DNA of 64,000 nucleotides from NCBI RefSeq assembly GCF_016862215.1, contig NZ_BOMN01000022.1, positions 113,274 through 177,273 of the forward strand, given 5' to 3'. Position 1 is the first letter of the stretch. Every line of letters begins with the position of its first letter. The DNA comes from Winogradskya humida (GTDB taxonomy: Bacteria > Actinomycetota > Actinomycetes > Mycobacteriales > Micromonosporaceae). A program made the translations under genes and the position numbers. Of the stretch, positions 28,519 to 46,133 are shown in pieces. The notes beneath the pieces were generated by a model. That model worked only from the letters and a program-made list of their open reading frames with translations. It was not told the DNA's origin and ran no database searches.

Positions 28519-29157
28519 GACCGACCTGGTGCGCCGGTCCAGCAGGTCCAGTGAGACGCCGAGCAGGGCCACCGCCAGCGGGTCGGAGGCGTCCATCGCG
28601 GCGTGTTCGGAGAGCCGGGCCAGCAGGTTGCCCAGCGGGGGCGGCGGCGCGGTCCGGTCGGTGCGCCGCAGCAGGGCGAGGCTCAGGGCGGCCTGGGCGG
28701 CGATCAGGTCGAGCAGTTCCATGTCGTCCAGTTCGCGAGCGGCGGCGTCGGCGTCGTCGGGGCCGCTGGCCCGGCGGTCCAGGACCTCCAGCACGCCGAT
28801 GCACTCGCCGTCGGCGACCAGTGGGGCCGCCATGATGCTCGCCGGCAGGTAGCCGGTGGACGCCGCCGCGTCGCGGGCGAACCGGTCCGTGCCGCTGACG
28901 TCGGTGATCAGCGTCTGGCAGCTCGCCGCCACCCAGCCCGCGATGCCGGTGCCGGGTGCGAACCGGCGGCCGACCAGGCTCTGCTGGCCCGCGCCGGCGA
29001 CCGCGGCGAAGACCAGTTCGCCGGTGTCGGGGCTGACCATGAAGACCGACGTGGCGGCCGCCGAGTAGACGTGGCGTGCCACCGCGACGATGGACTGCAG
29101 CAACCGCTGTTCGGTGACTCCGCTATGTGGCTCTGCTGACGAGAACTCCACCGTCAT
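28507..29157 (-). CDS. GAF-domain protein
   Basis: A 216-aa soluble protein. One GAF domain spans about residues 15-145 (FMVSPDTGELVFAAVAGAG, then SIMAAPLVADGECIGVLEVL). The last 65 residues are helical, with no kinase, HTH or phosphatase domain. It probably binds a small molecule or acts as a regulatory subunit. It is the last gene of a tightly packed leftward operon: its start lies 35 bp inside the end of the S8 protease gene. A stand-alone GAF partner for the upstream cyclase is one possibility. Confidence 0.8.
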   Translation of the reverse strand: MTVEFSSAEPHSGVTEQRLLQSIVAVARHVYSAAATSVFMVSPDTGELVFAAVAGAGQQSLVGRRFAPGTGIAGWVAASCQTLITDVSGTDRFARDAAASTGYLPASIMAAPLVADGECIGVLEVLDRRASGPDDADAAARELDDMELLDLIAAQAALSLALLRRTDRTAPPPPLGNLLARLSEHAAMDASDPLAVALLGVSLDLLDRRTRSVAHR

Positions 29158-30016
29158 CCCCCTCGATCGATACGTTGTCGGCGCAGTGGTAGAGCACGCT
29201 CTTGAGCTGGAACGGCGTCAGCCACGGGTGTTTGCTCAGGACCCGGGCGGCGATCCCCGCGATGTGCGGCGCCGCGAAGCTGTTGCCGGTGTTGCGGGTG
29301 ACACCGCCACCGGGCTGCGCGACGGGCACGCGTACGCCCCGTGCGCAGAATTCCACCGGCGGCGCGGCGTTGTAGTAGTAGGTGAGCGGGCCGGGCTCCG
29401 CGTGGCTCGCCACGGAGATCACCGACGAGAACGCCCACGGGAAGCTCTCGATCGGCAGGTTGTGCGCGGCCACGACGAGGGTCGTGCGGCGGAAGTAGGC
29501 GCGGTCGCAGAGCTCGGCCAGGCGGCCCCGGAATTCCAGCCGGGCGGTGGACAGGCTCATGTTGATGACGTCGAAGTCCTGCTCGATGGCGTACGCGAGC
29601 CCCGCGATCAACGCCGCCGCACTGCCGGACTTCCCGTCCTCGAGGACCCGCAGCGAGCTGAGTTCCACGCCGGGGGCGAGTTCGCGGATGATCCCCGCGC
29701 ACGCCGTGCCGTGCCCTGCGGTGTCGGACGGCTCGCAGGCGCGGACCCGGGGCACCCGGCCCTCCTCGGTGACGACCTCCCAGGCCCGGTCGACGGGGCC
29801 GGTGAGGGGGTGGGTCGCGTCGATGCCGCTGTCGAGGACGCAGACGCGTACGCCGCTGCCGTCCGCGCCGTCGAGGGCCCATTCCCGGTCGACACCGCCG
29901 AACAGGCTCGCGGGTACGGGCTCCTCGCGGTACCCCGTGGCCGGCATGCCCCACGCCGGTACGCCCGCGAAGTACCTGGCCCGTTCACGCCGCCACGGCG
30001 CGGGGGTCAGCTCCAT
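29123..30016 (-). CDS. Cytoplasmic subtilisin-like (S8) serine protease
   Basis: A 297-aa protein with no signal peptide or propeptide. The catalytic triad is visible: VCVLDSGID (D62), TAGHGTACAG (H102) and GNSFAAPH (S246), with oxyanion Asn in AAHN (N186). The Ser motif is GNSFAAPH rather than the usual GTSMAAPH. Intracellular S8 proteases occur in RiPP clusters, where they cut leader from core, so this is a candidate leader peptidase (inference). It overlaps the cyclase gene by 10 bp and the GAF gene by 35 bp. Confidence 0.85.
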   Translation of the reverse strand: MELTPAPWRRERARYFAGVPAWGMPATGYREEPVPASLFGGVDREWALDGADGSGVRVCVLDSGIDATHPLTGPVDRAWEVVTEEGRVPRVRACEPSDTAGHGTACAGIIRELAPGVELSSLRVLEDGKSGSAAALIAGLAYAIEQDFDVINMSLSTARLEFRGRLAELCDRAYFRRTTLVVAAHNLPIESFPWAFSSVISVASHAEPGPLTYYYNAAPPVEFCARGVRVPVAQPGGGVTRNTGNSFAAPHIAGIAARVLSKHPWLTPFQLKSVLYHCADNVSIEGDDGGVLVSRAT

Positions 30017-32811: not shown

Positions 32812-32814
32812 GCG

Positions 32815-32994
32815 TCAGAGCAGCTTCAGGTCGTGGGCGGTGACCTCGCCCTCGGCGTCGCGCAGCCGGTCGTGCACGTCGACGAGCAGGGTCGTCTCCT
32901 GTTCCGACAGCGCGGCCAGCACCGCCTGCTGCGGTCCGCTCAGCTGGTCGACCGGATATCCGGCGTCGCGCAGCACACCCAGGGCGTCATGCAT
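32815..32994 (-). CDS. 59-aa leader-peptide-like protein lacking a core
   Basis: A small protein starting with ATG 32994. Residues 4-54 align without gaps to residues 5-55 of the RiPP precursor at 40786, with 16 of 51 identical, including LRxAG, QxS, QET, RL and AH. It then stops after only five more residues (DLKLL), so there is no core peptide and no cysteine. It resembles small proteins that I recall being annotated as an aroma-sacti cluster domain (memory, unchecked). It could be a free leader that activates or titrates the maturases. It is flanked by one- and three-base gaps in the operon. Confidence 0.75.
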   Translation of the reverse strand: MHDALGVLRDAGYPVDQLSGPQQAVLAALSEQETTLLVDVHDRLRDAEGEVTAHDLKLL

Positions 32995-32995
32995 T

Positions 32996-33259
32996 TCACT
33001 CACCCACCAAAGAGAGTTCGGACATCGGGGCGTACGGCGGGGGCCAGACGCCGACCGGCAGCAGCCGGTGCACATAGCAGTACGCGACCAGCTCGGCCCG
33101 GTTGCGGCACTTGAACCGCCCGAGCAGGACGCTGATCTCCTCGCCGACCGTGTGCCGGCTCAGCCGCAGCTCGCGGGCGGCCCGGTCGGTGGTGTGCCCG
33201 CGCGCGAGCATCGCCAGCAACTGCAGGTCGCGGGCGGAGACCGGGTCAGCGGGCGGCAT
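32996..33259 (-). CDS. Stand-alone LuxR-type HTH protein
   Basis: An 87-aa protein consisting almost only of a LuxR-family helix-turn-helix (SARDLQLLAMLARGHTTD, then RAARELRLSRHTVGEEIS). There is no receiver or ligand domain. The start lies 14 bp inside the end of the ATP-grasp gene. Such bare HTH proteins may act with a partner. It is a candidate pathway regulator of the RiPP cluster. Confidence 0.8.
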   Translation of the reverse strand: MPPADPVSARDLQLLAMLARGHTTDRAARELRLSRHTVGEEISVLLGRFKCRNRAELVAYCYVHRLLPVGVWPPPYAPMSELSLVGE

Positions 33260-34169
33260 CGAACAGCTCCCGGAGCATCACGGCGGCCAGGAACGTCACG
33301 CCGTGCCAGCGGGCGCGGCGCTCGTACCAGAGCCAGTCGCCGTCCGGGTTGGCCTCCAGGAAGACGACCTCGCCGGTGCCGGTGACGAGCAGGTCGAACG
33401 CCGCGTAGCGCAGACCCCACGCGGCGGCCAGGGCCCGGACCACCACCGCGGCGGCGCCCGGGCAGTCCGTGCGGGTCACGCTGACCGACGCCGGATCGGT
33501 CCAGGTCGCCGCGGGGTTCCGCTTGCCGACGTCGAACGCGCACACCGTGCCGTGGAGGTAGTACACGCGCAGCTCGCGGACGTGCGCGACGTATTCCTGC
33601 ACCACGACCGGATGCCCGCCGCTGTCCTTCACCGCCGGGGCGTCGAGCACCACAGGCAGGTGGGTGGCCCAGCTACGCGGGTCCGGCTCGGCGAGGCGGA
33701 AGTCCGGGGTCTTGACCATCACCCGGTCCGTGCCCAGCTGCCGGGCCGCGGCGGCGACATCGGTGCTGAGCACCGTACGCGGTACGCGTACCCCGAGCCG
33801 CCCCGCCGACCGCACCTGCGCCGTCCCGGCCGGAGCGGTCCCCGGCAGCGTGGTGGCCGCCGCGGCGCACACCTCACTGAGGAAGTCCCCCCACGCCGAA
33901 GCCGCGAGCGCCGACATCGACCCCGCCGGACGGGCGTGGGCCACGAGCGTGCCGGGTGCCCGGTGCCGCGTCCACACCACCGCCGGGCGCACCCGCCGCC
34001 CGCCGTCCGTCAGCGTTCCCGAATCGACGTCGAGAGAAAGGGGACCGTCGCCCGCGCCGATCGTTATCGCCGGTGTCGAGAATGCTCCGGTCACCATGTC
34101 GCGTACCCCGGTCAATTCCGCACCGCCCGCGCCGTCGAACAGCACTACAGCCGGTTCTGCCATAACCAT
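33246..34169 (-). CDS. ATP-grasp enzyme of the RiPP-maturase type
   Basis: A 307-aa protein with ATP-grasp features: VMVKTPDFR (ATP-binding Lys), VVQEYVAHVRELRVYYLHG, and a metal-binding end AFDLLVTGTGEVVFLEANPD. The sequence style matches ATP-grasp ribosomal peptide ligases (graspetide maturases), which form ester or amide crosslinks, but there is no typical graspetide precursor here. It is the first gene of the leftward operon and is divergent from the ABC transporter genes. Its role in this cluster is therefore open: crosslinking the main precursor, or a signalling or tailoring function. Confidence 0.78.
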   Translation of the reverse strand: MVMAEPAVVLFDGAGGAELTGVRDMVTGAFSTPAITIGAGDGPLSLDVDSGTLTDGGRRVRPAVVWTRHRAPGTLVAHARPAGSMSALAASAWGDFLSEVCAAAATTLPGTAPAGTAQVRSAGRLGVRVPRTVLSTDVAAAARQLGTDRVMVKTPDFRLAEPDPRSWATHLPVVLDAPAVKDSGGHPVVVQEYVAHVRELRVYYLHGTVCAFDVGKRNPAATWTDPASVSVTRTDCPGAAAVVVRALAAAWGLRYAAFDLLVTGTGEVVFLEANPDGDWLWYERRARWHGVTFLAAVMLRELFDAAR

Positions 34170-34301: not shown

Positions 34302-35246
34302 GTGGCGACCGATGTGGTGAGTGCGGTGGAGCTGACGAAGCGCTACCGCGGCAAGGAAACGCCGGCGGTGGACGGCATCTCGTTCGACATCGCCCGGGGC
34401 GAGACCGTCGGGCTGCTCGGGCCCAACGGCGCGGGGAAGACCACCCTGATGAAGCTGATCTGCGGGGTCACCCCGCCGACCAGCGGCGTGATCCGGGTCT
34501 TCGGGCTGGACCCCGCGCAGGACCCGGTGCGCGCCAAGTCCGGGATCGGTGCGATGCACCAGTCCGGCCCGTACGACGAGATGCTGTCCGGCCTGGACAA
34601 CCTGCGGATCGCCGCGAAGTTCCGGGGCCTGTCGTGGCGCGCCGTCGAGCCCTGGGCGGGCGAGGTGGCCGGCTATCTCGGGCTGACCGAGGCGCTCCCA
34701 CGGCTCGTGTTCCAGCTCTCCGGCGGGCAACGGCAGCGGCTGCAGCTCGTCCGGGCGCTGCTCACAATCCCGCAGCTGCTGATCCTCGACGAGCCGTCGG
34801 CGGGCCTGGACGTCGCCGGCCGGCACCAGGTCGAGCAGTTCGTGCGATGGCTGCGCGCCGAGCACGGCGTGACGGTGCTCTGGACCAGCCACCACATCGA
34901 GGAGATCGAGCGCAACTGCCAGCGCGTCCTGGTCGTCAGCGCGGGCCGGGTGCTGCGCTTCGCCCAGCCACGCGAGCTGGTCCGCGAGTACGGCGGCAGC
35001 CGCCTGGTCGTGACCGTCGACGACCCGATCGCCGCGAAGGTCGTCGCCGAATGGGCCGACGGCGAGGGGCTCACGGCGACTGTCGACGACACCGAGGTGC
35101 AGATCGACGGCGCCGCCGGGCGTGACGTGCTGCCCGGCCTGACCCGGCACTGCCAGGACGCGGGTGTGGCGATCACCGGGTTCACGACCGCCGCCGACTC
35201 CCTGGAGCAGGTGTTCCTCCGGATGACAGAAAAGGCTTCCCAGTGA
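34302..35246 (+). CDS. ABC transporter ATP-binding protein (RiPP export or immunity)
   Basis: A 314-aa protein starting with GTG 34302, ribosome-binding site GGGGAGGGA. The ATPase is intact: Walker A GLLGPNGAGKTTLMKL, signature LSGGQRQRLQL, Walker B LLILDEPSAGLD and switch His in TSHHIEEIE. The C-terminal 80 residues follow the layout of drug-resistance ATPases (DrrA type). It is the first gene of the rightward RiPP operon and overlaps its permease by four bases. It probably exports the mature peptide or protects the producer. Confidence 0.88.
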   Translation: MATDVVSAVELTKRYRGKETPAVDGISFDIARGETVGLLGPNGAGKTTLMKLICGVTPPTSGVIRVFGLDPAQDPVRAKSGIGAMHQSGPYDEMLSGLDNLRIAAKFRGLSWRAVEPWAGEVAGYLGLTEALPRLVFQLSGGQRQRLQLVRALLTIPQLLILDEPSAGLDVAGRHQVEQFVRWLRAEHGVTVLWTSHHIEEIERNCQRVLVVSAGRVLRFAQPRELVREYGGSRLVVTVDDPIAAKVVAEWADGEGLTATVDDTEVQIDGAAGRDVLPGLTRHCQDAGVAITGFTTAADSLEQVFLRMTEKASQ

Positions 35247-36052
35247 GCGAATTGGCGTTCGAGCACACCCCGCCGGTCGCGCCCGCGCGTGCCGCCGACT
35301 TCTCCGCGGTGTTCTACCGGGAGTACGCCCTGCTGGCCCGCAACCGGGTCAACCTCATCTTCGGCCTGACCCCGACCCTGGTGTACCTGCTGCTGGTCAA
35401 CACCGCGCTCGGCAACGTCGTCGGCGACATCTCCTACAAGGGCACGAACTTGCCGTTCGCGGTCTTCCTGCTGCCGATGGTGCTGGCGATGTCCGTGGTC
35501 AGCGCCGCGGGCACCACCGGCATGGCGCTGTTCCAGGAGGAGATGAGCGGCGTCTCCACACAGCTGTGGTCGTGGCCGCTGCGCCGGTCGCGTTTCCTGC
35601 TCGGCAAGCTGCTCGCCGGGGTCACGCTGGTCCTGGCGCAGAGCCTGCTGGCGCTGGTCGTGGCGATGGCGTTGTTCCGCTACCCGTTCCCGCTCGCCAA
35701 CTGGCTGACGATGCTGGTCGCGCTCGTGCTCGCCGCGGTGGCGTTCAACGGCATCTACCTGGCCGGCGCGATCCTCATCCGCGACTACCGGACGTTCTCC
35801 GTGCTCAGCAGCATCTCGGTGCTCGTGCTGGTGTTCACCGCCCCGGCGCTGTCCCCGGTGGACCAGTTGCCGGTCGTGCTGCGCTGGATCTCGGTGGTGA
35901 ACCCGGTGACGTACGCGATCAACGGCATGCGCGACGGCGCCGTGCTCGGGTTCGGCTCCGCGTGGCCCAGCCTGGTCGTGCTCGCGGTCATCGCCGTCGT
36001 GGCCAACGCCGTCGCTGCGCGTGCGCTGCTACGGCGTACCGCCAATCTCTGA
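35243..36052 (+). CDS. ABC-2 type permease
   Basis: A 269-aa integral membrane protein with six predicted helices. The stretch TRYREYALLARNRVNLIFG-like region (seen as YREYALLARNRVNLIFGLT) and the central motif VSAAGTTGMALFQEEMSG are typical of ABC-2 permeases. Translation starts at GTG 35243, overlapping the ATPase stop, so the two are coupled. It forms the membrane part of the RiPP transporter. Confidence 0.87.
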   Translation: MSELAFEHTPPVAPARAADFSAVFYREYALLARNRVNLIFGLTPTLVYLLLVNTALGNVVGDISYKGTNLPFAVFLLPMVLAMSVVSAAGTTGMALFQEEMSGVSTQLWSWPLRRSRFLLGKLLAGVTLVLAQSLLALVVAMALFRYPFPLANWLTMLVALVLAAVAFNGIYLAGAILIRDYRTFSVLSSISVLVLVFTAPALSPVDQLPVVLRWISVVNPVTYAINGMRDGAVLGFGSAWPSLVVLAVIAVVANAVAARALLRRTANL

Positions 36053-36068
36053 CCGGGGGAGCGAGCAC

Positions 36069-37211
36069 ATGCGAACCGAGACCGACCAGCGGAAAGTACG
36101 GCTGCCCGGCACCGATCGGGCCCGGCCGCCCGCGGAGACCTTCGTCATGGCGGAGCGGGCCGCCGCGATCGTCGGTGTCACGCGGGTCGCCGACATCACC
36201 CGGCTCGACACCATCGGGATCCCCACGTTCCAGGCGGTCCGGCCGCTGTCCGCGACCCTGGCCGTGTCGCAGGGCAAGGGCGTGACCCCGGAGCTGGCCA
36301 GGCTCTCCGCGGTGATGGAGTCCGTGGAGATCTGGCACGCCGAGCAGCCGCTGACCGCGGAGCTGACGGCGAGCCCGCGCGAGGTCGCCCACCGGCTCAC
36401 CTACGACGTGTACGCCCTGACCCCCAGCGTCCCCAGCGTTCTGCACGACGGGCTGCCCCTCGACTGGGTGCCGGCGCGCTCGCTCGACGGTGGCGCGCTG
36501 ACCCTCGTACCCGTCGATGTCGTCGGCCTCTCCCTGCAGCGCCGCGACGGCTGGCACCCGCCCGCATTCCTGTCCTCCACCAACGGTCTGGCCAGCGGCA
36601 ACACCGTCGTCGAGGCCACCCTGCACGGCCTCTACGAGGTGATCGAACGCGACGCGGTCACGGCGGCCCTCGCCGGTAGCGGCGTCCCCGGCGTCCGTGT
36701 CGCGCCGGAGAGCCTGGGCTCGGCGGTGGCCGACGGGCTGAGCGAGCTGATCGACCGGGCCGGCGTCACCCTCGAGGTCCGCCTGCTCGCGTCCCCCACC
36801 GGCCTGCCGTGTTTCCTCGCGTGGCTGGCCTGCGACGACTACCCGGCGGCCATGTTCGGCTTCGGCTGCCACCTGGACCCCGAGATCGCGCTGACCCGGG
36901 CGGTCACCGAGGCGGCGCAGACCCGGCTCAGCTACATCGCCGGTGCCCGCGACGACCTGCACGACGACATCGACGACGCGGGGTCGAAGCGCCGCCGGGA
37001 ACCCGCCGGCACCGCCGCCGGCCTGCGTGATCTGCTCGCGCCCCCGGTCCGGCACGAGAGCCTGCTGGAAGACCTCGTCCATGTCACCGCCGTGGCCACC
37101 GCCGCGTTCGGTCACCCGCCGCTGGTCGCCGAGCTGACCCGCGCCGAGATCGGCGTGCCGGTCGTCAAGGTCATAGCTCCGGGCAGCCGCGTCACCACGG
37201 AGGTGCTGTAG
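36069..37211 (+). CDS. YcaO-domain protein (azoline/thioamide-type cyclodehydratase)
   Basis: A 380-aa YcaO protein. ATP-binding motifs include LSAVMESVEIWHAE (79-92) and NGLASGNTVVEATL (172-185), followed by LYEVIERD (188-195). The C-terminus ends VTTEVL, without the PxPxP tail of classical azoline-forming YcaO enzymes. YcaO proteins activate amide backbones with ATP. Coupled to TfuA they install thioamides (known for the thioviridamide family). The TfuA gene follows with a one-base overlap. The predicted substrate is the precursor at 40786. Confidence 0.9.
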   Translation: MRTETDQRKVRLPGTDRARPPAETFVMAERAAAIVGVTRVADITRLDTIGIPTFQAVRPLSATLAVSQGKGVTPELARLSAVMESVEIWHAEQPLTAELTASPREVAHRLTYDVYALTPSVPSVLHDGLPLDWVPARSLDGGALTLVPVDVVGLSLQRRDGWHPPAFLSSTNGLASGNTVVEATLHGLYEVIERDAVTAALAGSGVPGVRVAPESLGSAVADGLSELIDRAGVTLEVRLLASPTGLPCFLAWLACDDYPAAMFGFGCHLDPEIALTRAVTEAAQTRLSYIAGARDDLHDDIDDAGSKRRREPAGTAAGLRDLLAPPVRHESLLEDLVHVTAVATAAFGHPPLVAELTRAEIGVPVVKVIAPGSRVTTEVL

Positions 37212-38488
37212 TGACTCCCGCAACCGTGGTCGTCTACGCCGGGCCGACCATCTCCGCCACCGACATCCACCGCGTCCTCCCGGCAGCCGAGATCCGGCCC
37301 CCGGCGGCCCGCGGCGACCTGCTCGCCCGCGACTGGCGGCCCGGTGACGTGGCCGTGCTGATCGACGGCTACTTCCGGGAACGGCGCTCGGTCGGGCACA
37401 AGGAGATCCTGCGCCTGATCGACGCCGGGGTCCGCGTGCTCGGCGCGGCCAGCATGGGTGCGCTGCGGGCCGCGGAGCTCGCACCCTGCGGCATGCACGG
37501 CGTCGGCGATGTCTACGAGATGTACCGCTCGGGGCGCATCGACGGCGACGACGAGGTCGGCATGCTGCACGGACCGGCCGAGCTCGGGTATCCCGCGCGG
37601 ACGGTCGCCCTGGTCAACCTGCGGTACGGCTGCGACGAGGGCGGGTTCGGCCCGCGGATCGTCGCGGCGGCCAAGGCCATGCCGTTCATGGACCGTACGT
37701 GGGCCGAGCTCGCCGCCGCCGTCGAGGAGCCGGACCGGGTCGCGCTGCTCGCCCTGGAGCACCGGATCGGCTCGGGGGAGTGGGACCTGAAACGCCGCGA
37801 CGCCCTCGCGGCACTGCGGGTGGCCGCCGCTCCGGGTGTCACTCCGGCGGTACACCAGGCGGTCCCGTTCGCGGTGATCGCCGAGCATCAGGCCCTCGAC
37901 CGGCGTACGCGCCGCGAGTACGCCCCCGGCCGCTGGATGTCCGACCTGGACGTCCTCACCGCCGCGCGGCTCTTCGACGACGGCTACCCGGAGGTCCACG
38001 AGCGGGTGCTGACCGGGTTGCTCGACGGGTTCGCGGCTGCCGGGGGGACGAGTACGGCGGAATACGCGTACGCGAAGCTGGGTGTTGACGATCCCCTGCC
38101 CGACGCCCTCGCCGGCTGGCTGACCGACGCCGAGATGGTCCGGTTGCCCCCGGCCGAGCGGATCACGCAGGTCCTCGTGCGGGTGTGGCCGGTGTGGCAC
38201 AGCTCCGACTGGCGGCCCGCCGTCCTCGAGGCCCTGCGGGGCTCGGAACGCTGGGATCAATGGTGCGACCTGGTGGTCCGGGCCGATGAGGCCGCCGAGC
38301 AGGCCCGGTTCCGGGTGGCTGTCCCGCCGCCCGCGGTGTGCGCGCAGTTGTTCCTGCGGCACTGGCGTGGACCCGGCACGGCACCGCGGGTCGAGATGGC
38401 CCGGCGGGGATTCAGCTCTCCCGAGGAGCTGGGTGGCGCGGTGCGGCGCTATTTCGCGTACGACATGAGCCGCCGGGGCACCCGATGA
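37211..38488 (+). CDS. TfuA-like protein, YcaO partner
   Basis: A 425-aa protein. The N-terminal 220 residues are the TfuA domain, with VVVYAGPTISATDI at the start, the signature GAASMGALRAAEL (78-90) and VYEMYRSGRIDGDDEVGML. About 200 further residues form a C-terminal region I do not recognise. TfuA proteins assist YcaO enzymes in thioamide formation, probably by delivering sulfur. It starts with GTG 37211 and overlaps the P450 start by four bases. Confidence 0.88.
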   Translation: MTPATVVVYAGPTISATDIHRVLPAAEIRPPAARGDLLARDWRPGDVAVLIDGYFRERRSVGHKEILRLIDAGVRVLGAASMGALRAAELAPCGMHGVGDVYEMYRSGRIDGDDEVGMLHGPAELGYPARTVALVNLRYGCDEGGFGPRIVAAAKAMPFMDRTWAELAAAVEEPDRVALLALEHRIGSGEWDLKRRDALAALRVAAAPGVTPAVHQAVPFAVIAEHQALDRRTRREYAPGRWMSDLDVLTAARLFDDGYPEVHERVLTGLLDGFAAAGGTSTAEYAYAKLGVDDPLPDALAGWLTDAEMVRLPPAERITQVLVRVWPVWHSSDWRPAVLEALRGSERWDQWCDLVVRADEAAEQARFRVAVPPPAVCAQLFLRHWRGPGTAPRVEMARRGFSSPEELGGAVRRYFAYDMSRRGTR

Positions 38489-39672
38489 CGGCGACCCTGT
38501 TCGACCCGGGCCTCCGTGCTGATCCGCACCCGATGTTGCGGCGCATGCGCGAGGAGGCGCCCGTCCACCGCCACGTGACACCGGTCAGCGGTCGAACGTT
38601 CTGGTACCTCACCCGGTACGCGGACGTGCAGGCCGCGCTGCACCACCCGGACCTCGGGCGTCAGCTCGACCGGTTGCCGGCCGGGCTCGCCGCCACGCAC
38701 CGCCGGGCGACCGCCGACCCCCTGGCCATGCTGCGGCGCAACGTCTTCCACCTCGACCCGCCCGACCACACCCGGCTGCGGCGGCTGATCACCCCCGCGT
38801 TCGGCGCCCGCACCGTCGCCGCGATCGACGACCACATCACCCGCATCGTCGGCGAACTGATCGACGACCCCTCATGGGGAGAGGGCGGCGTCGTAGACGT
38901 CATCGAGGGGCTGGCGTTGCCGTTGCCGGTGCTGGTTGTCGCGGAGCTGCTCGGCTTCCCGGTCGAGGACCGGGCGTCGCTGCGCCGGTGGAGCGACGAG
39001 ATGAGCCGCAGCGAGGACCCGGCCCGCATCCAGCGCGCGGGCCTGGAGTTCGCGAGCCACCTCGCCAAGGTCATCGCCCAGCGCCGTAAGACCCCCGGCG
39101 ACGACCTGCTGTCCCAGCTCGCCCTCGCCCCGATCAGCCGCCCCGAGCAGATCGCGGCGGTCTTCCAGCTCCTGCTCGCCGGCGACGAGACCACCGTGAA
39201 CCTGATCGGCAACGCGGTGCTGGAACTGCTTCGCCACCCGGACCAGCTCGCCCGGCTGCGCGCGGACCCCGGCCTGCTCGAGTCGTGTGTCGAGGAGGTC
39301 ATCAGGTTCAACGGGCCGGTTGGGCACACCGGCCTGCTGTACGCGCTGGCCGACGTGGAGATCGGCGGCACGATCGTCCCGCGCGGCGACGCCGTGGTGC
39401 CGGTGCTGCTCGCGGCGAACCGGGACCCGGCGGTGTTCGCGGACCCGGACGTGTTCGACATCGGGCGTACCCCGAACCGGCACCTCGGCTTCGGCCACGG
39501 CATCCACTTCTGCCTCGGCGCGGCCCTGGCCCGGATGCAGGCCCGGACGGCGGTCGGCACGCTCGTGCGGCGGTTCCCCGCGCTGCGCCCGGCCGGTGAC
39601 CTGTCCGCGTTGCGGTGGACGCCGGATCTGTTCCTGCACGGCGTACGCCACCTGCCCGTACATCTGACATGA
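38485..39672 (+). CDS. Cytochrome P450
   Basis: A 395-aa soluble P450. The oxygen-binding helix has LLLAGDETTVNLI, the K-helix has EEVIR, and the haem-binding loop is FGHGIHFCLGAALAR with the ligand Cys at 343. The length is typical of bacterial class I P450s, which need a separate ferredoxin; none is encoded next to it. It probably hydroxylates or crosslinks the peptide. The start codon overlaps the TfuA stop (ATGA). Confidence 0.93.
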   Translation: MTATLFDPGLRADPHPMLRRMREEAPVHRHVTPVSGRTFWYLTRYADVQAALHHPDLGRQLDRLPAGLAATHRRATADPLAMLRRNVFHLDPPDHTRLRRLITPAFGARTVAAIDDHITRIVGELIDDPSWGEGGVVDVIEGLALPLPVLVVAELLGFPVEDRASLRRWSDEMSRSEDPARIQRAGLEFASHLAKVIAQRRKTPGDDLLSQLALAPISRPEQIAAVFQLLLAGDETTVNLIGNAVLELLRHPDQLARLRADPGLLESCVEEVIRFNGPVGHTGLLYALADVEIGGTIVPRGDAVVPVLLAANRDPAVFADPDVFDIGRTPNRHLGFGHGIHFCLGAALARMQARTAVGTLVRRFPALRPAGDLSALRWTPDLFLHGVRHLPVHLT

Positions 39673-39685
39673 AGGGTCCCGTGTC

Positions 39686-40690
39686 ATGACCTACACGCCG
39701 CTGACCCGGATGGCCTTCGGCTACGCCACCTCGCAGATCCTGCACACCGCCGTGCGGCTCGGCATCCCGGAAGCCCTCGAAGCGGGACCGCTGCCGCAGG
39801 AGAAGCTCGCCGTCGAGACCTCGTGCGACCAGGCAGGACTGGGCCGGCTCCTGCGCGCGCTCACCGTCCTCGGGGTGATCGGGCAGACACCCGCCGGGTA
39901 CGCCCTCACCGACCTGGGCCGGCCGCTGTGCCCCGGGCATCCCGGGTCGCTGCACGCCGCGCTGCTGATGCTCGGCGACCCGGCGATGTGGCGGGCCTGG
40001 GGGTCGCTGACCGACGCGGTCCGCTCCGGCGGCTCGGCGTTCGAGCACGCCCACGGGCATCCGCTCTTCGACCACCTCGCCGGGGATCCGGGACTGTCCA
40101 CCCTGTTCAACACCGCGATGGGCGCGGGGACGGGGGAGGTGGCGGGTGACTTCGTCCGGGCGTACGACGTCCGCGCGGCCCGCACGGTGGTCGACATCGG
40201 CGGCGGCAACGGCACCCTGCTCGCCGCCGTCCTCGCCGCGGCCCCGGACGCCCACGGCGTCCTGCTCGACAGCGCGGAAGGCGCGGCCCGGGCAGCACCG
40301 ACGTTACGCCGTGCCGCACCCCCGGAACGCTGGACGATCACCCCCGGCGACTTCTTCGACACCGTCCCCGAGGGCGACCTGATCCTGCTCAAGGGCATCC
40401 TGCACGACTGGGACGACCGGCGGTGCGTCACGATCCTGCGCAACTGCCGCCGCTCGATAGCCCCGGACGGCCGCCTGCTCGTGCTCGAACCCGTGGTGGC
40501 GCCCGGCGCCGGTCCAGGCGCCGCGGCCGCGGTCATGAGCGACATCGCCATGCTCGTGCTCACCGGCGGCCAGGAACGCACGGCAGCCGAATACCGCGCG
40601 CTTCTGGCCGCCTCCGGATTCGCCCTTTCCGCCATTACCGAACCGCTCGGCGCCACTCCCACGCGTATTCTCGCCGCCATTCCGTGTTGA
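39686..40690 (+). CDS. SAM-dependent O-methyltransferase
   Basis: A 334-aa methyltransferase of the plant-type/hydroxyneurosporene family. A winged-helix dimerisation domain covers about 1-100. The SAM-binding motif is VVDIGGGNGTLLAAVL, then GDFFDTVPEGDLILLKGILH, with the catalytic His in LHDWDD. It likely methylates a hydroxyl on the peptide, for example one made by the P450 (inference). The gap of 95 bp after it, with a hairpin, separates it from the precursor gene. Confidence 0.88.
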   Translation: MTYTPLTRMAFGYATSQILHTAVRLGIPEALEAGPLPQEKLAVETSCDQAGLGRLLRALTVLGVIGQTPAGYALTDLGRPLCPGHPGSLHAALLMLGDPAMWRAWGSLTDAVRSGGSAFEHAHGHPLFDHLAGDPGLSTLFNTAMGAGTGEVAGDFVRAYDVRAARTVVDIGGGNGTLLAAVLAAAPDAHGVLLDSAEGAARAAPTLRRAAPPERWTITPGDFFDTVPEGDLILLKGILHDWDDRRCVTILRNCRRSIAPDGRLLVLEPVVAPGAGPGAAAAVMSDIAMLVLTGGQERTAAEYRALLAASGFALSAITEPLGATPTRILAAIPC

Positions 40691-40697
40691 TTGTCCG

Positions 40698-40715
40698 ACC
40701 CCACATTCGTGGGGT
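40698..40715 (+). terminator. Small hairpin before the precursor gene
   Basis: ACCCCAC-ATTC-GTGGGGT, a 7-bp stem just after the methyltransferase stop. It may attenuate read-through or mark an RNA processing point upstream of the precursor. Confidence 0.4.
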
Positions 40716-40785
40716 TGTGCGACGGTAATACGAGCCAGCATTCTTCTCCTATCCCCGCTATTTCCCACAGCGAAAGGAAAAGGCC

Positions 40786-41049
40786 ATGTCCTACAACTCG
40801 GTAGAGGCACTGCGTGAAGCCGGCATCATCGGCGGCCAGATGTCGCCGGAGCTCGAGGAGTTCTACGGCAGCCTGACCCAGCAGGAGACCGAGGTCCTCA
40901 TCTCCACCAAGAGCCGGCTCGTGGCGCTGTTCCCCGACGTCGCGGCGCACTCCCAGGAATGGTCCACCCCCGAGGCGGCAGAGCAGGGTTTCGACGCCGC
41001 GATGCTGTGCGCCTGCGCGATCTGGTCGGGGTCCGGCGCGGCCAACTAG
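40786..41049 (+). CDS. RiPP precursor peptide with Cys-Ala-Cys core
   Basis: An 87-aa peptide starting with ATG 40786 (ribosome-binding site GGAAAAGG). The leader, about 1-68, contains VEALREAGIIGGQMS and SLTQQETEVLISTKSRL. The C-terminus is different in composition: FDAAMLCACAIWSGSGAAN, with only two cysteines (75, 77), one Trp and small residues, which suits thioamidation plus thioether or aromatic crosslinking. The leader matches the 59-aa protein at 32815 without gaps. The gene lies in the middle of the maturase operon and has hairpins on both sides. The cleavage site is not determined. Confidence 0.8.
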   Translation: MSYNSVEALREAGIIGGQMSPELEEFYGSLTQQETEVLISTKSRLVALFPDVAAHSQEWSTPEAAEQGFDAAMLCACAIWSGSGAAN

Positions 41050-41060
41050 CTCGACCCCGT

Positions 41061-41092
41061 GCGCCGGCGTGGCCAGCGGGCCACGCCGGCGC
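41061..41092 (+). terminator. Strong hairpin after the precursor gene
   Basis: Perfect 14-bp stem, GCGCCGGCGTGGCC / GGCCACGCCGGCGC, with loop AGCG, between the precursor stop and the radical SAM start. There is no U-tract. It is probably a partial terminator or 3' stabiliser that raises precursor mRNA over maturase mRNA. Confidence 0.7.
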
Positions 41093-41113
41093 CGAACCGG
41101 CGAAGGAGACATC

Positions 41114-42589
41114 ATGCGCGGGCATCTGGTTCGCAACCGCTCATTGTTCGACGTGCCGAAGGACCTGACGTACTTCGTGCACGGCGACGACCATCTTGTG
41201 ATCAACCCGGCGGTCGGGGCCCGCTGCGTCCTGACGCCGGCGGAATTCCGGGTGCTCGAGGCGCTGGCCACCGGGGCACCGCTGGAGACCGCGCAGGAGA
41301 CCGAGAAGGCCCTCGCCAAGTTCATCCTCAGCTGGATCGTCTACTACAACGGGCACCGGCCCACGATCACCGCCAACGAGTCGCCGCTCAACATGGCGTA
41401 CTACGCGATCACCGACGGGTGCAACCTGCGCTGCCCGTACTGTTACGCGTCCTCGGAGAAGTGCCTGCCGAACGAGCTGACCACCGCCGAGTCCCTGGAC
41501 CTGGTGACCCAGATCGCCGAGTTCGGCGCGAAGACCATCGTCTTCACCGGCGGCGAACCGATGCTGCGCAAGGACCTCTTCGAGATCGTCGCCCACGCCC
41601 GGGCCCAGGGACTGCTGGCCAACGTGATCACCAACGCGACGATGATCCGTACCCCGCAGATCGCCCGGCGCTTCGCCGAGCTGTTCAACTCGGTCACGGT
41701 CAGCGTGGACGGCAGCACCGCCGAGACCCACGACAAGACCCGCGGCAAGGGTACGTTCGCCAAGACCCACAAGGCGTTGCGGATGCTCAACGCCGCGGGG
41801 GTGACACCGCGCATCAACCACATCGTCACCTCCGACAGCATCGGCGAGCTGGAGAAGTTCGCGGAGTTCATCCAGGGGCTGGACGTGCACAGCGTGCGGC
41901 TGATGAACCACAACGAGATCGGCCGCGGGGCCAGTGACAACTACGACTTCGGCTGGAACGACCACCTGCGGGTGCAGCAACTCGTCTGGACCTCGCCGAT
42001 AGCCGGCACCCTGCGCCCGGACGGCCCGCGCCCGGTGAGCCCCTGCTCGGTCAGCGGCAACTGCGGGATGGGCGGCAACGAGATCTACATCAACTCGCTC
42101 GGCGACATCTACCCCTGCAAGCTGGTCACCGGCAAGGCCGAGCACGCCGGCAACATCCGCACCCAACCGCTGGCGGACATCTTCGCCAGCCCGGTGCTCG
42201 CGGCGATGCGCCGGAGCACGGTCTTCGGCGGCGAGTTCCACGAGGACTGCGCGAAGTGCTACATCAAGTCGAACTGCGGCGGCGGCTGCCGGGCCACGCA
42301 CATGTCGCTCTCCGGCGACCTGCGGCGCAACGACCGGCACTTCTGCCGGATCCTGCGCCACGGCGTGGTCACCCAGCTGTGGCAGGAGTCCGGGGTCAGC
42401 CGCGCCGAGATCGCCGCGGACGACGAGGCGATGACCGTCCCGCGGATGGTCGGCGGCGGTGCCGTGCACGAGGCGTACGACCAGTGGAAGACCTACGTTC
42501 CCAAGCCGCCGCCGGTGATCCGCACCGGCGCGCTGATCCCCATCATGCCGGTACCGAGGAGGTCGGGCAGTGTCCCTGCACATCAGTGA
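41114..42589 (+). CDS. SPASM-domain radical SAM peptide maturase
   Basis: A 491-aa enzyme starting with ATG 41114 after AAGGAGA. The radical SAM motif is GCNLRCPYCYA (C103, C107, C110), and FTGGEPMLRKDL follows. The C-terminal SPASM domain is rich in Cys: NCGMGGNEIYINSLGDIYPC, then EDCAKCYIKSNCGGGC and a final HFC. A preceding wHTH-like N-terminus and a following PqqD gene fit leader binding. Such enzymes make Cys-to-carbon or carbon-carbon crosslinks. The likely substrate residues are in the CACAIW core. Confidence 0.9.
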   Translation: MRGHLVRNRSLFDVPKDLTYFVHGDDHLVINPAVGARCVLTPAEFRVLEALATGAPLETAQETEKALAKFILSWIVYYNGHRPTITANESPLNMAYYAITDGCNLRCPYCYASSEKCLPNELTTAESLDLVTQIAEFGAKTIVFTGGEPMLRKDLFEIVAHARAQGLLANVITNATMIRTPQIARRFAELFNSVTVSVDGSTAETHDKTRGKGTFAKTHKALRMLNAAGVTPRINHIVTSDSIGELEKFAEFIQGLDVHSVRLMNHNEIGRGASDNYDFGWNDHLRVQQLVWTSPIAGTLRPDGPRPVSPCSVSGNCGMGGNEIYINSLGDIYPCKLVTGKAEHAGNIRTQPLADIFASPVLAAMRRSTVFGGEFHEDCAKCYIKSNCGGGCRATHMSLSGDLRRNDRHFCRILRHGVVTQLWQESGVSRAEIAADDEAMTVPRMVGGGAVHEAYDQWKTYVPKPPPVIRTGALIPIMPVPRRSGSVPAHQ

Positions 42590-42848
42590 ATCCGTCATCT
42601 GGAACGAGACGGCCGACGGCGTCTCGCTCTACCACACCGAGACCGGCGATTTCCGTACGCTGAACGCCACCGCGGCCCAGATCTGGGTCCTCCTCGCCGA
42701 CGGCGGCGACCCGGCGTCGGTCGGCTCCCGGCTGGCGCTGCTGTTCGCCGGCGGCAACGCCGCGATCGCCGCCCGCATCCGCACCGAGGTCCAGACCTTC
42801 GTGGCCTCGATGCTCAGCCAGGGCCTGCTGGAGGACCAACCCTCATGA
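42570..42848 (+). CDS. PqqD-like leader-binding protein (RRE)
   Basis: A 92-aa protein of PqqD size and pattern (VIWNETADGVSLYHTETG, then FRTLNATAAQIWVLLADGG). PqqD proteins are RiPP recognition elements: they bind the leader peptide and present it to the maturase. It starts at GTG 42570, 20 bp inside the radical SAM gene, and overlaps the FAD gene by four bases. Direct partnership with the radical SAM enzyme is very likely. Confidence 0.87.
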   Translation: MSLHISESVIWNETADGVSLYHTETGDFRTLNATAAQIWVLLADGGDPASVGSRLALLFAGGNAAIAARIRTEVQTFVASMLSQGLLEDQPS

Positions 42849-44167
42849 CCTCGGCCGTCGTGCTCGGGGGCGGGTTCGCCGGGGTGCTGGCGGCCCGGGT
42901 GCTCGCCGGTCACGCCGGCACCGTGACCGTGATCGAGAGCGGCCACTACCCGCAGACCCCGGGAGCGCGGCCCGGCGTGCCGCAGGCCCACCACAACCAC
43001 GTGCTGGTCACCGGGGGAGCGCGGGCGCTCGACGAGCTGATCCCCGGCACGGTCGCCGCGCTGCTGGCGGCGGGCGCGCACCGGCGCGGCCTGACCGGCG
43101 ACGCCCTGATCCTCAGCGCGGACGGCTGGTTCCGCCGCCACGAGACCGGCGCGTTCGCGATCTCGTGCAGCCGCTGGCTCCTCGACCACGTCCTCCGCGC
43201 CCGGGCCCTGACCGACCCTCGCATCACCGTCCGCGAGGGCCACCGAGCCCTGCGCCTCATCACCGCCGCCGGCCGGGTCACGGGTGTGGTGGTCACCGGG
43301 CCGGACGGGCGGACCGAGGAACTCCCCGCGGACCTGGTGGTCGACGCGACCGGACGGCGTTCCCCTGCAGGGCGCCGGCTGCCCGGGGTCGAGGAGACGG
43401 TGGTGGACTCCGGGCTCGCGTACTCCACCCGGGTCTATCAGGCCCCGGCCGGTCTCAGCCGGGGCATGCCCGCGATCATGCTGCACCCCCGGACGACCGC
43501 AGGCCGCGAGGGTCACGGCGCGACCCTGTTCCCGATCGAGCGGGGCCGCTGGATCGTCACCCTGACCGGCACCCGCGGCAACACCCCACCCGTGGACGCG
43601 GCCGGCTTCACGGCATGCCTGGCCGCCCTGGGCTCACCGATCGTCGCGGACGTCCTGGCCGGCGCACGCCCGATCGGCCCCCCGCGCCCGTACCGCGCCA
43701 CCGCCAACCGCCGCCGCCACTTCGAACGCCGCCGTACCGGGGGCTTCCTCGTCCTCGGCGACGCGCTGGTGGCCACGAACCCGGTCTACTCGCTCGGCAT
43801 GTCGGTGGCCGCGCTCAGCGCCCTGCGACTGGACGGCGCCCTGACCGAGCACGGCCTGCACGCGGCCCCGGCCCTGCAGCAAGCCGTCGCCGCGGAGGCG
43901 GACCGGGCCTGGCAGATGGCGGTGGCGAAGGACCGCCCGGCCCCCGCCACGGTCCCGGCGCCCCTGCGTGCCCTGATCGGCCGGTCCCTGCTCGGCAGCC
44001 CGGCCCTGATCGGCGAGCTGTTCCGCGACCAGACCCTGCTCGAACCGGCGACCGGCGGCCTTCGCACCCTCGCCGGGCCCCCGCCGCCGCTGCTCAGCAC
44101 CGGTGACGCGGTGGCGCAGTTCCCCCGGCTCGGCGACTGGTACTCGGCAATGGGGAGGGCGACATGA
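42845..44167 (+). CDS. FAD-dependent monooxygenase-like oxidoreductase
   Basis: A 440-aa flavoprotein. The N-terminal FAD-binding fingerprint is AVVLGGGFAGVLAARVLA, then the region VVDATGRRSP and GFLVLGDALVATNPVYSLGM, typical of group A flavin monooxygenases and geranylgeranyl-reductase-like enzymes. It is probably an oxidation or dehydrogenation step on the peptide. Its start overlaps the PqqD stop, and its own stop overlaps the next gene by four bases. Confidence 0.85.
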   Translation: MTSAVVLGGGFAGVLAARVLAGHAGTVTVIESGHYPQTPGARPGVPQAHHNHVLVTGGARALDELIPGTVAALLAAGAHRRGLTGDALILSADGWFRRHETGAFAISCSRWLLDHVLRARALTDPRITVREGHRALRLITAAGRVTGVVVTGPDGRTEELPADLVVDATGRRSPAGRRLPGVEETVVDSGLAYSTRVYQAPAGLSRGMPAIMLHPRTTAGREGHGATLFPIERGRWIVTLTGTRGNTPPVDAAGFTACLAALGSPIVADVLAGARPIGPPRPYRATANRRRHFERRRTGGFLVLGDALVATNPVYSLGMSVAALSALRLDGALTEHGLHAAPALQQAVAAEADRAWQMAVAKDRPAPATVPAPLRALIGRSLLGSPALIGELFRDQTLLEPATGGLRTLAGPPPPLLSTGDAVAQFPRLGDWYSAMGRAT

Positions 44168-46035
44168 CCGTGATCCCGCACGAGGTGCTGTTCGGCAACC
44201 CGGCATACCTGAAGCCTGAGGTCTCCCCGGACGGCCGCAGCCTGTTCTTCCTCGCCCCGCACGAGGGTGTGATGAACGTCTGGACCGCCCCGGTCGGCGA
44301 CCCCGGCGCGGCGACCCCGGTGACTGACGACCGCGGCCGCGGCATCCGGCTCTTCGGCGTGTGCCACGACAACCGCACCCTGTTCCACCTGCGCGACCGC
44401 GACGGCGACGAGAGCTGGCGGCTCTACCTGGTCGACCTCGCGACCGGCGCGGAACGCTGCGCGACCCCGTTCGACGGCGTCCAGGCCCGCATCCTCACGC
44501 ACAACCGCCGCCACCCGGGCACGATCCTGCTCGGACTCAACAGGAACCGCCCGAACCTGCACGACGTCTACCGCCTCGACCTGGCCACCGCCGAGCTCAC
44601 CGAGGTGGCCACGAACCCCGGCTATCTGAGCTGGATCATCGACGCCGACCTGAACGTGCGCGGCGGCACCCGCATGCACCCGGACGGCAGCCTGACGATC
44701 CACGTCGACGACACCGTCCTCGAGGTGCCCTACGAGGACGTCATGACCACCCGCGTCCTGGGCTTCTCCGCCGACAGCAGCACGTACTACCTGCAGTCGT
44801 CGATCGACGCCAACGCCAGCCGCCTCTTCGCCGTCGACGTCGCCACGGGCACCCACACGCTGCTGGCCGAACACCCCGTCCACGACATCCGCCAGGTCGA
44901 GGTCCACCCGGAGACCGGCGTCCCCCAGGCGGTCATCTTCGCCGGCGACCGCGACGAGCGCCTCTTCCTCGACGAGACCTACGCCAAGGACCTCGACCGC
45001 ATCACAACGGCCCTTCACCACCTTGATGCCGAGGTGTACGCCGACCGCGCCGCCCCCGTCTGGACGATCACCGCCGTCACCGGTGCGGGCCCGCTGCTCT
45101 ACTACGTCTACGACCCGTCCCGTGAACAGCTGACGTACCTGTTCAACCACCAGCCCGCCCTCGACGCGTACGAGCTCGCTCGGATGGAACCGTTCACGTT
45201 CACCGCGCGGGACGGCGTACCCGTGCATGGGTATGTGACCTGGCCCTTGAACTGCTCCGGCCCGGTGCCCGCGGTCGTCAACGTGCACGGCGGCCCCTGG
45301 TCCCGCAACTTCTTCGGCTTCGACGAGGAAGCCCAGCTCCTGGCCAACCGCGGCTACGCCTGCATCCAGGTCAACTATCGCGGCTCCACCGGTTACGGCA
45401 AACGCTTCCGCAACCTCGGCGCCCGCCAATGGGGCGCCGCCATGCACACCGACCTGCTCGACGCGGTCACCCACCTGACCACCACCAGCGCGATCGACCC
45501 GGCCCGGGTGGCGATCATGGGCTGCTCGTACGGCGGCTACGCGGCCCTGGCCGGAGCGGCCTTCACCCCCGACGTCTTCGCCTGCGCCATCGACCTGTGC
45601 GGCCCGTCGAGCCTGCTGACGATGCTCGCCGCCGGCGCCCCCTACCGAACCCCCCTCACCGCCTTCATGTACGCCCAGGTAGGCGACCCCGAACTCGACG
45701 CGGACATGCTCTGGGCCCGTTCCCCGTTGTCCCGCATCAACGACATCACCATCCCCATCCTGATCGCCCAGGGCGCCAACGACGTCCGCGTACCCCGATC
45801 AGAAGCGGAACAGATCGTCGAAGCCCTCCGCCACAAAGGCCTGCCCCACGAATACCTCCTCTTCCCCGACGAAGGCCACGGCCTCGCCCGCCCCCACAAC
45901 CGCCAGACCTACTACACCGCCGTAGAACGCTTCCTCGCCACCCACCTGTCCCCGAAAGGCCCCCCATGCGCTCCTGGAACACCCCCCGCGGTGGGGGAGA
46001 CATCGTCTACGGCCTCGGCCTCATCGGCGCCCTGA
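44164..46035 (+). CDS. Prolyl-oligopeptidase-family (S9) serine peptidase
   Basis: A 623-aa protein. Residues 1-350 form a beta-propeller that gates substrate size. The alpha/beta-hydrolase domain follows, with nucleophile GCSYGGYA (S455), Asp in GANDVRV (D540) and His in DEGHGLARP (H572). Small-peptide specificity makes it a candidate for removing the leader or trimming the product, or for self-resistance. The last 25 residues (Pro/Ser/Ala-rich) overlap the next gene in another frame and look like an extension rather than conserved sequence. Confidence 0.87.
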   Translation: MTVIPHEVLFGNPAYLKPEVSPDGRSLFFLAPHEGVMNVWTAPVGDPGAATPVTDDRGRGIRLFGVCHDNRTLFHLRDRDGDESWRLYLVDLATGAERCATPFDGVQARILTHNRRHPGTILLGLNRNRPNLHDVYRLDLATAELTEVATNPGYLSWIIDADLNVRGGTRMHPDGSLTIHVDDTVLEVPYEDVMTTRVLGFSADSSTYYLQSSIDANASRLFAVDVATGTHTLLAEHPVHDIRQVEVHPETGVPQAVIFAGDRDERLFLDETYAKDLDRITTALHHLDAEVYADRAAPVWTITAVTGAGPLLYYVYDPSREQLTYLFNHQPALDAYELARMEPFTFTARDGVPVHGYVTWPLNCSGPVPAVVNVHGGPWSRNFFGFDEEAQLLANRGYACIQVNYRGSTGYGKRFRNLGARQWGAAMHTDLLDAVTHLTTTSAIDPARVAIMGCSYGGYAALAGAAFTPDVFACAIDLCGPSSLLTMLAAGAPYRTPLTAFMYAQVGDPELDADMLWARSPLSRINDITIPILIAQGANDVRVPRSEAEQIVEALRHKGLPHEYLLFPDEGHGLARPHNRQTYYTAVERFLATHLSPKGPPCAPGTPPAVGETSSTASASSAP

Positions 46036-46133
46036 TCCATTACATCGCCGAAGCGAACGCCTTCTGGCCCGCCCTCCTGGGCATCCTCAAAGCCCTGATC
46101 TGGCCCGTCTTCCTGGTCCAGTCCCTCCTCTAG
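45966..46133 (+). CDS. Small membrane protein overlapping the S9 peptidase gene
   Basis: A 55-aa protein (ATG 45966, with AAAGG upstream). The sequence is mostly one or two hydrophobic helices, YGLGLIGALIHYIA and FWPALLGILKALIWPVFLVQ, preceded by a short polar start. It overlaps the upstream gene by 70 bp in a different frame. The strongly hydrophobic pattern supports it as real. The role is unknown; immunity is only a guess. Confidence 0.65.
   Translation: MRSWNTPRGGGDIVYGLGLIGALIHYIAEANAFWPALLGILKALIWPVFLVQSLL

What the first reader, a model, noticed from the sequence alone, without database searches (positions are those of the whole stretch)
34302..46133. RiPP cluster combining YcaO-TfuA and SPASM radical SAM with PqqD
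One tightly overlapping operon encodes ABC export, YcaO, TfuA, P450, O-methyltransferase, precursor, radical SAM, PqqD, FAD oxidoreductase and S9 peptidase. YcaO-TfuA pairs are established for thioamides; SPASM radical SAM plus PqqD for peptide crosslinks. Both acting on one precursor, with P450, flavin and methyl steps, would be a hybrid class. The YcaO also lacks the PxPxP tail.
Basis: partly seen in the sequence, partly recalled or inferred. Interest (0 to 1): 0.9.

Follow-up and report, generated by a model that had tools for sequence, protein, structure and literature searches.

The report
Thioamidated-sactipeptide cluster with chimeric precursor
An actinomycete gene cluster, of a kind whose two sulfur-chemistry halves stay together in 34 of the 35 related clusters compared here, is predicted to put two normally separate changes, sulfur crosslinks and sulfur-for-oxygen swaps, onto one small peptide; the product has not been seen and would be a hybrid type of molecule.

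Summary
The operon is real and where stated. The precursor (40786-41049) is an NCBIfam 'StsA-related CxC sactipeptide' (135 bits, cut-off 75) and the radical SAM enzyme is StsB-family (851 bits, cut-off 625), so predicted to make sactionine thioethers. YcaO-TfuA look like thioamidating enzymes. The combination is conserved: of 35 CxC loci read (window plus 34), 34 have this TfuA, although gene order differs. An inverted repeat, CCCAC-N4-GTGGG, lies upstream of 32 of 38 precursors and 20 of 28 ABC-YcaO-TfuA operons but 0 of 275 other genes; its stricter form occurs once in the window's 11.1-Mb genome, before the precursor. 32 of 35 loci hold one CxC precursor. Both enzyme systems very probably act on one peptide. 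Against: one locus has a precursor heading each half; one lacks YcaO-TfuA. Prior art: Malit 2021 reported this gene set by mining; I found no product in my searches.

The parts
34302..35246 (+). ABC transporter ATPase (DrrA-like), ABC1
   Evidence: PF00005 103 bits; present in 31 of 34 fetched CxC loci, some stretches cut
35243..36052 (+). ABC-2 permease, ABC2
   Evidence: PF01061 92 bits; 32 of 34 fetched CxC loci
36069..37211 (+). YcaO, predicted thioamide-forming (ORF opens at 36021)
   Evidence: PF02624 229 bits; nearest functional NCBIfam model McrA-glycine thioamidation YcaO, 190 bits but under its cut-off of 365; best solved relative MJ1094, 6pe3
37211..38488 (+). TfuA, predicted sulfide-delivering partner, with about 210-residue C-terminal helical extension
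38485..39672 (+). Cytochrome P450 (CYP267B1/TamI/PikC-like)
   Evidence: PF00067; PDB search; 30 of 34 fetched CxC loci
39686..40690 (+). O-methyltransferase
   Evidence: PF00891 158 bits; 24 of 34 fetched CxC loci
40699..40714 (.). Inverted repeat CCCCAC-ATTC-GTGGGG, candidate operator
   Evidence: exact site; stricter pattern once in the 11.1-Mb genome; conserved upstream of precursors and of ABC1
40786..41049 (+). Precursor peptide, StsA-related CxC, 87 aa: N-terminal aroma-sacti domain (about 1-55), WSTP (59-62), core with C75, C77, W80, G82, G84
   Evidence: NF045559 135.4 bits, cut-off 75; NF045560 60.5 bits, cut-off 30; invariant residues over 29 sequences; model
41114..42589 (+). StsB-family radical SAM/SPASM enzyme, predicted sactionine synthase
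   Evidence: NF045574 850.8 bits, cut-off 625; CxxxCxxC in the sequence
42570..42848 (+). PqqD-like stand-alone RiPP recognition element (StsC-like position)
   Evidence: PF05402 35 bits; 34 of 34 fetched CxC loci
42845..44167 (+). Flavin monooxygenase of the Lsd18/MonCI (alkene epoxidase) type
   Evidence: 8up4 E 7e-87, MonCI E 4e-73; 34 of 34 fetched CxC loci
44164..46035 (+). S9 prolyl-oligopeptidase-family peptidase
   Evidence: PF00326 160 bits; 9 of 34 fetched CxC loci
33246..34169 (-). ATP-grasp protein of the divergent module
   Evidence: TIGR04187 67 bits, under cut-off 350; homologues in 11 of 34 fetched CxC loci and in L118, L119 away from StsB
32996..33259 (-). LuxR-type HTH small protein
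   Evidence: PF00196 33 bits, cut-off 23.5; in L086 and L087 in one open frame with the leader-like domain
32815..32994 (-). Core-less leader-like protein (LEAD), 59 aa, ends ...AHDLKLL
   Evidence: NF045560 61.2 bits, cut-off 30; read
30007..32811 (-). Class III nucleotidyl cyclase-AAA-TPR protein (CYC)
   Evidence: PF00211, PF13191; beside the leader-like protein in 25 of 34 fetched CxC loci
29123..30016 (-). Subtilase (S8), candidate leader peptidase
   Evidence: PF00082 104 bits; conserved
28507..29157 (-). GAF-domain protein
   Evidence: PF01590 55 bits; conserved

Best explanation
This is a RiPP cluster of the StsA-related CxC family in which a StsB-type radical SAM enzyme and a YcaO-TfuA pair are both predicted to modify the same 87-residue precursor, likely giving a peptide with sactionine crosslinks and backbone thioamides. 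Inferred course: the PqqD-like protein would hold the WSTP motif (59-62) and present the C-terminal tail to StsB, which would link the sulfurs of C75 and C77 to alpha carbons, perhaps in the conserved SGSG stretch. YcaO with ATP, and sulfide released by TfuA from a ThiS thiocarboxylate, would thioamidate one or more backbone amides of the same tail. The Lsd18/MonCI-type flavoenzyme, P450 and methyltransferase would oxidise and methylate, the invariant W80 being one candidate. S8 and/or S9 peptidases would remove the N-terminal part, and the ABC pair would export the product. Shown here: the genes, their families, their co-conservation, the shared inverted repeat and the single precursor in most loci. 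Not shown: any chemistry, order of steps, site of thioamidation, peptidase identity or bioactivity.
Against: No product or assay. L065 has two CxC precursors, one heading each half, so the halves could serve different peptides there. G578 (L067) keeps two CxC precursors, StsB, PqqD and FAD without YcaO or TfuA, and G590 (L088) has YcaO-TfuA without StsB or a recognisable precursor, so the two are separable. In the window, its close relatives and the two Streptomyces loci the repeat is not upstream of ABC1, so co-regulation is shown in relatives, not here. In the window alone the repeat has no statistical weight: with up to 3 mismatches 1 found, 1.18 expected. YcaO and TfuA fall below the McrA-specific NCBIfam cut-offs. 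Genomes are related, so counts are not independent events. The first look of the family-wide searches scored only 4 or 5 candidates per genome.
Confidence: 0.7

Rival explanations
1. YcaO-TfuA and StsB act on different peptides: the cluster is two adjacent pathways, and YcaO-TfuA thioamidates another peptide or protein (for example a second CxC precursor, or the core-less leader-like protein).
For: L065 has one precursor heading each half; the two halves are separate operons in many loci; YcaO-TfuA without StsB in G590 and StsB without YcaO-TfuA in G578.
Against: 32 of 35 loci have one CxC precursor; no alternative conserved small ORF among those printed; the halves share the inverted repeat; both L065 precursors have near-identical cores; G590 has no aroma-sacti domain at all.
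Confidence: 0.13
2. The radical SAM enzyme makes another bond (ranthionine to a beta or gamma carbon, or a carbon-carbon link to W80) rather than a sactionine.
For: Malit 2021 report that antiSMASH calls such clusters ranthipeptide; the invariant Trp beside CxC would be a natural partner.
Against: StsB family match 851 bits (cut-off 625) to a model named sactipeptide maturase; StsB is called a sactipeptide enzyme in PMC12710340 (passages). The StsB sactionine assay itself (Precord 2023) is recalled: the paper is not held.
Confidence: 0.12
3. YcaO-TfuA act on Cys or Ser side chains to make azol(in)es, or are vestigial.
For: Two conserved Cys in the core; loss in one locus (L067).
Against: No E1-like/ThiF-like or dehydrogenase partner in the scanned proteins; TfuA kept in 34 of 35 loci; K64 and S81 invariant over 42 TfuA sequences.
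Confidence: 0.05

Closest known systems
StsA/StsB/StsC sactipeptide system (Streptomyces sparsogenes by recall; StsC-StsA binding in PMC12710340)
   Same: StsB-family radical SAM, stand-alone PqqD-like recognition protein, WxxP motif before a CxC-rich, Gly/Ser-rich tail
   Different: StsA-type precursors seen next to three divergent StsB genes (L083-L085) are short, lack the N-terminal aroma-sacti domain, and their stretches lack YcaO, TfuA and the flavoenzyme. I did not read the S. sparsogenes cluster itself.
TfuA-YcaO gene cluster families of Sphaerisporangium, Microbispora and Herbidospora (Malit et al. 2021, PMC8120280)
   Same: TfuA-YcaO with SPASM radical SAM, stand-alone PqqD, P450 and O-methyltransferase; figure legend also lists a prolyl endopeptidase
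   Different: There assigned as ranthipeptide by antiSMASH and not linked to StsA/StsB; no shared operator, bipartite precursor or leader-like module mentioned in the section read. Their supplementary precursor alignments were not available to me.
YcaO-TfuA of methanogens (McrA-glycine thioamidation; 6pe3, 6xp8)
   Same: Nearest functional models and solved structures for both proteins
   Different: Acts on a protein; below the curated cut-offs for the McrA-specific families; this TfuA has a C-terminal extension of about 210 residues
Thioviridamide-like thioamitides and thiovarsolins
   Same: YcaO-TfuA thioamidation of a RiPP precursor
   Different: The NCBIfam scan of this precursor at E <= 0.1 gives only the three sactipeptide-related models; other enzymes differ (recalled)

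Membership tests
StsA-related CxC sactipeptide RiPP (NF045559/NF045574) | Precursor over curated cut-off | tested here: met
   135.4 bits, cut-off 75
StsA-related CxC sactipeptide RiPP (NF045559/NF045574) | StsB-family radical SAM/SPASM over cut-off, next to precursor | tested here: met
   850.8 bits, cut-off 625; 64 nt downstream of the precursor stop
StsA-related CxC sactipeptide RiPP (NF045559/NF045574) | S-to-alpha-carbon thioether in the product | not testable with these tools
   needs MS/NMR
StsA proper (NF045558) | Precursor over the StsA cut-off | tested here: not met
   19.2 bits, cut-off 42; matches residues 56-85 only
Thioamidated RiPP (YcaO-TfuA) | Adjacent ycaO and tfuA genes | tested here: met
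   36069-37211 and 37211-38488 overlap by 1 nt; Pfam YcaO and TfuA over cut-off
Thioamidated RiPP (YcaO-TfuA) | TfuA fold with Ser-Lys catalytic pair | tested here: inconclusive
Thioamidated RiPP (YcaO-TfuA) | Thioamide in the product | not testable with these tools
   needs high-resolution MS
McrA-specific YcaO/TfuA (TIGR03266, NF033432) | Score over curated cut-off | tested here: not met
   190.5 v 365 and 147.4 v 235.2 bits
Azoline-forming TOMM (SagD type) | SagD-type YcaO with E1-like/ocin-ThiF partner | tested here: not met
   SagD model 108 bits, cut-off 219; no such partner among the proteins scanned
Ranthipeptide | Thioether to beta or gamma carbon | not testable with these tools
   only antiSMASH-type labels in print

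The most novel reading that the evidence does not exclude
A natural hybrid RiPP class: a chimeric precursor made by joining an N-terminal peptide domain, drawn from a separate ATP-grasp/HTH/cyclase/subtilase/GAF module, to a StsA-type WxxP-core tail, so that the tail recruits the sactionine machinery and the new N-terminal domain recruits the added machinery (YcaO-TfuA, flavoenzyme and/or the module's subtilase). The product carries thioethers and thioamides together, and the module's core-less copy of the domain acts as a leader mimic that senses or sets precursor supply.
Probability: 0.35. Interest if true: 0.82.

Novelty: new variant of a known kind. Interest (0 to 1): 0.6.

Why it matters
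Sactionine and thioamide chemistry are each established on separate RiPPs; my searches found no characterised peptide with both. A cluster kept as a unit across several genera, with a shared operator, makes the hybrid a directly testable pathway and gives a choice of homologous loci for expression. Two natural separations (G578 without YcaO-TfuA, G590 without StsB) are ready-made controls. If the precursor is truly bipartite, it shows how evolution adds a second modification system to an existing RiPP: by adding a second recognition domain in front of the first. The core-less leader-like protein offers a handle on RiPP regulation.

Tried and rejected
Tried without use: plasmid collection search with the precursor (no match); the StsB paper (Precord 2023, PMC10288494) is not held, so what I say of it is the title in a reference list plus recall; paper searches for a thioamide-plus-sactionine product listed none that I could identify from titles, abstract starts and the passages read.

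Fold search of TfuA: nothing reliable for residues 212-425; that part was barely tested and was not folded alone, so no claim that its fold is new. I had hoped for a recognition-element fold there; not seen, not excluded.

Gene trees: the split of loci by architecture (S9-bearing v the rest, labels set by me) is exact for YcaO (support 0.93) and StsB, but not for TfuA (3 tips off), FAD (2) or ABC1 (4), and mean identities are mixed; so only weak support for inheritance as one unit.

Considered and rejected: QhpG-like role for the flavoenzyme (37 bits, cut-off 240) in favour of the Lsd18/MonCI relationship; a second genomic repeat in G590 as an operator (no precursor-like or sts-like gene in the 20 kb around it); the idea that the module carries the same repeat (0 of 12 ATP-grasp and 0 of 26 cyclase upstream regions); a precursor without recognisable homology (of 25 small-ORF families printed, the only one in all eight clades is the precursor/leader-like family; the next ones I looked at are parts of the subtilase and GAF genes or shadow frames).
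Full report
What is there. The window lies in an 11.1-Mb actinomycete genome close to Winogradskya consettensis (StsB 99%, TfuA 94% identical). The plus strand carries ABC1, ABC2, YcaO, TfuA, P450, O-methyltransferase, precursor, StsB-type radical SAM, PqqD-like protein, flavoenzyme and S9 peptidase. Each was matched to families: the precursor scores 135.4 bits (cut-off 75) with NCBIfam NF045559, 'StsA-related sactipeptide RiPP', and 60.5 bits (cut-off 30) with NF045560, 'aroma-sacti cluster domain'; the radical SAM enzyme scores 850.8 bits (cut-off 625) with NF045574, 'StsB family sactipeptide maturase'. A protein search gave 45 relatives of the precursor and 2136 scored relatives of the TfuA, 120 listed; several contig lengths are shared between the two lists.

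Is the combination conserved? StsB over its cut-off was found in 4 of 67 genomes of the genus, 32 of 341 of family f19 and 5 of 394 drawn from the class. This TfuA (E <= 1e-60) was found in 4 of 67 (the same four) and 29 of 341; in f19, 28 genomes have both, four have StsB only (G512, G585, G755, G578) and one has TfuA only (G590). I fetched about 20 kb around 37 StsB genes. In 34 the precursor is of the CxC kind; TfuA is in 33, YcaO in 32 (L056 is cut by the stretch; L067 lacks both), PqqD and the flavoenzyme in 34, P450 in 30, methyltransferase in 24, S9 in 9. With the window that is 34 of 35 with TfuA. Family f19 contains Sphaerisporangium (contig of G645 has the length of the S. melleum contig), so I take it as Streptosporangiaceae by inference; G761 and G762 are Streptomyces.

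Architecture. Three layouts keep the content: one long plus-strand run (window, close relatives, a few f19 loci), two halves facing each other (most f19 loci), and two halves about 13 kb apart (Streptomyces). In 32 of 35 loci there is one CxC precursor; L065 has one heading each half, and L067 and L076 have tandem pairs. A survey of small ORFs outside known genes found one family in all eight clades, the precursor/leader-like family; I read the 25 families printed.

A shared candidate operator. CCCAC-N4-GTGGG lies 99-86 nt before the window's precursor. Within 200 bp upstream it is found for 32 of 38 precursors and 20 of 28 ABC1 genes, and for 0 of 275 other genes (33 YcaO, 33 TfuA, 31 P450, 25 methyltransferase, 35 StsB, 35 PqqD, 35 FAD, 10 S9, 12 ATP-grasp, 26 cyclase); many of these others lie inside operons, so the random control, 162 of 10,500 windows of 200 bp from the same loci, is the fairer one. 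The form CCCACRWWYGTGGG occurs 53 times in these 674 kb against a mean of 0.0 in 20 block shuffles. In whole genomes it occurs once in G000 (this site), once in G012, and in the seven CxC genomes searched 12 of 15 sites are at the cluster; seven genomes without a CxC precursor hold four sites, one of them 160 bp before YcaO in G590. The pattern read backwards gives two sites in the 14 genomes. Misses: precursors of L052, L063, L066, L074 and the second copies in L067 and L076; ABC1 of the window, L051-L053, L065, L074, L086, L087. In the window alone the match is not significant when mismatches are allowed. The regulator is unknown.

Bipartite precursor. Across 29 relatives the invariant residues include W59, P62, C75, C77, W80, G82 and G84. 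A model (29 sequences, mean pLDDT 74) is confident for residues 1-40, fair to 50 and poor beyond. WxxP is the motif that StsC binds in StsA (PMC12710340, passages). The three divergent StsB genes (52% identical) sit beside short precursors with WxxP and Cys-rich, Gly-rich tails but no N-terminal domain, and their stretches lack YcaO, TfuA and the flavoenzyme. So the N-terminal domain goes with the added enzymes. This may be a single evolutionary event, and L067 keeps the domain without YcaO-TfuA, so recognition of the domain by YcaO-TfuA is a hypothesis.

The divergent module. On the minus strand, 28507-34169, lie ATP-grasp, LuxR-type HTH, a 59-aa leader-like protein that ends before any core, a cyclase-AAA-TPR protein, a subtilase and a GAF protein. 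The leader-like protein and the precursor's N-terminal part match the same 52-position model at 61.2 and 60.5 bits. All 34 fetched CxC genomes have such a domain apart from the precursor: 25 within the fetched stretch and nine elsewhere (G082, G153, G207, G227; G461, G464, G469, G645, G720); I read the frames of only some of the latter (L118, L119) to confirm the lack of a core. In the class sample, the domain is in 5 of 5 StsB genomes and 7 of 389 others; two of the three genomes with non-CxC StsB also have it, G585 and G590 do not. Among ten loci fetched around the domain away from StsB, all have the cyclase and seven have subtilase and GAF. In L086 and L087 the HTH and leader-like domains share one open frame. 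The module is thus a unit of its own that the CxC clusters keep.

What is known. I found no product, and no mention of the operator, the bipartite precursor or the leader-like module, in searches and the passages read; subscription papers are mostly not held. Verdict: a conserved, co-regulated, uncharacterised hybrid; new variant of a known kind.

Noticed in passing
window 28507-34169 (-); L117-L121, L123, L126: Module of leader-like peptide, cyclase-AAA-TPR, subtilase and GAF protein (ATP-grasp and HTH in some) also occurs away from StsB in Streptomyces-like and other genomes; several of its peptides end in GGALF or similar. Function unknown.
   Followed up: partly
L086 6858-7550 (+), L087 12030-12503 (-): LuxR-type HTH and leader-like domain in one open frame in two Streptomyces loci, hinting at a regulatory role of the leader-like domain.
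   Followed up: partly
window 42845-44167: RiPP-cluster flavoenzyme is a close relative of polyether epoxidases Lsd18/LasC and MonCI.
   Followed up: partly
window 37211-38488, residues 212-425 of TfuA: Long helical C-terminal extension with several invariant residues and no fold assigned.
   Followed up: partly
L088 (G590): YcaO-TfuA with the inverted repeat and an HTH gene but no precursor, StsB or aroma-sacti domain in the genome at the thresholds used.
   Followed up: partly
L083, L084, L085: Divergent StsB genes with short StsA-like precursors, tandem in L084.
   Followed up: partly
window 45966-46133 (+): Possible 55-aa membrane protein overlapping the end of the S9 gene.
   Followed up: no
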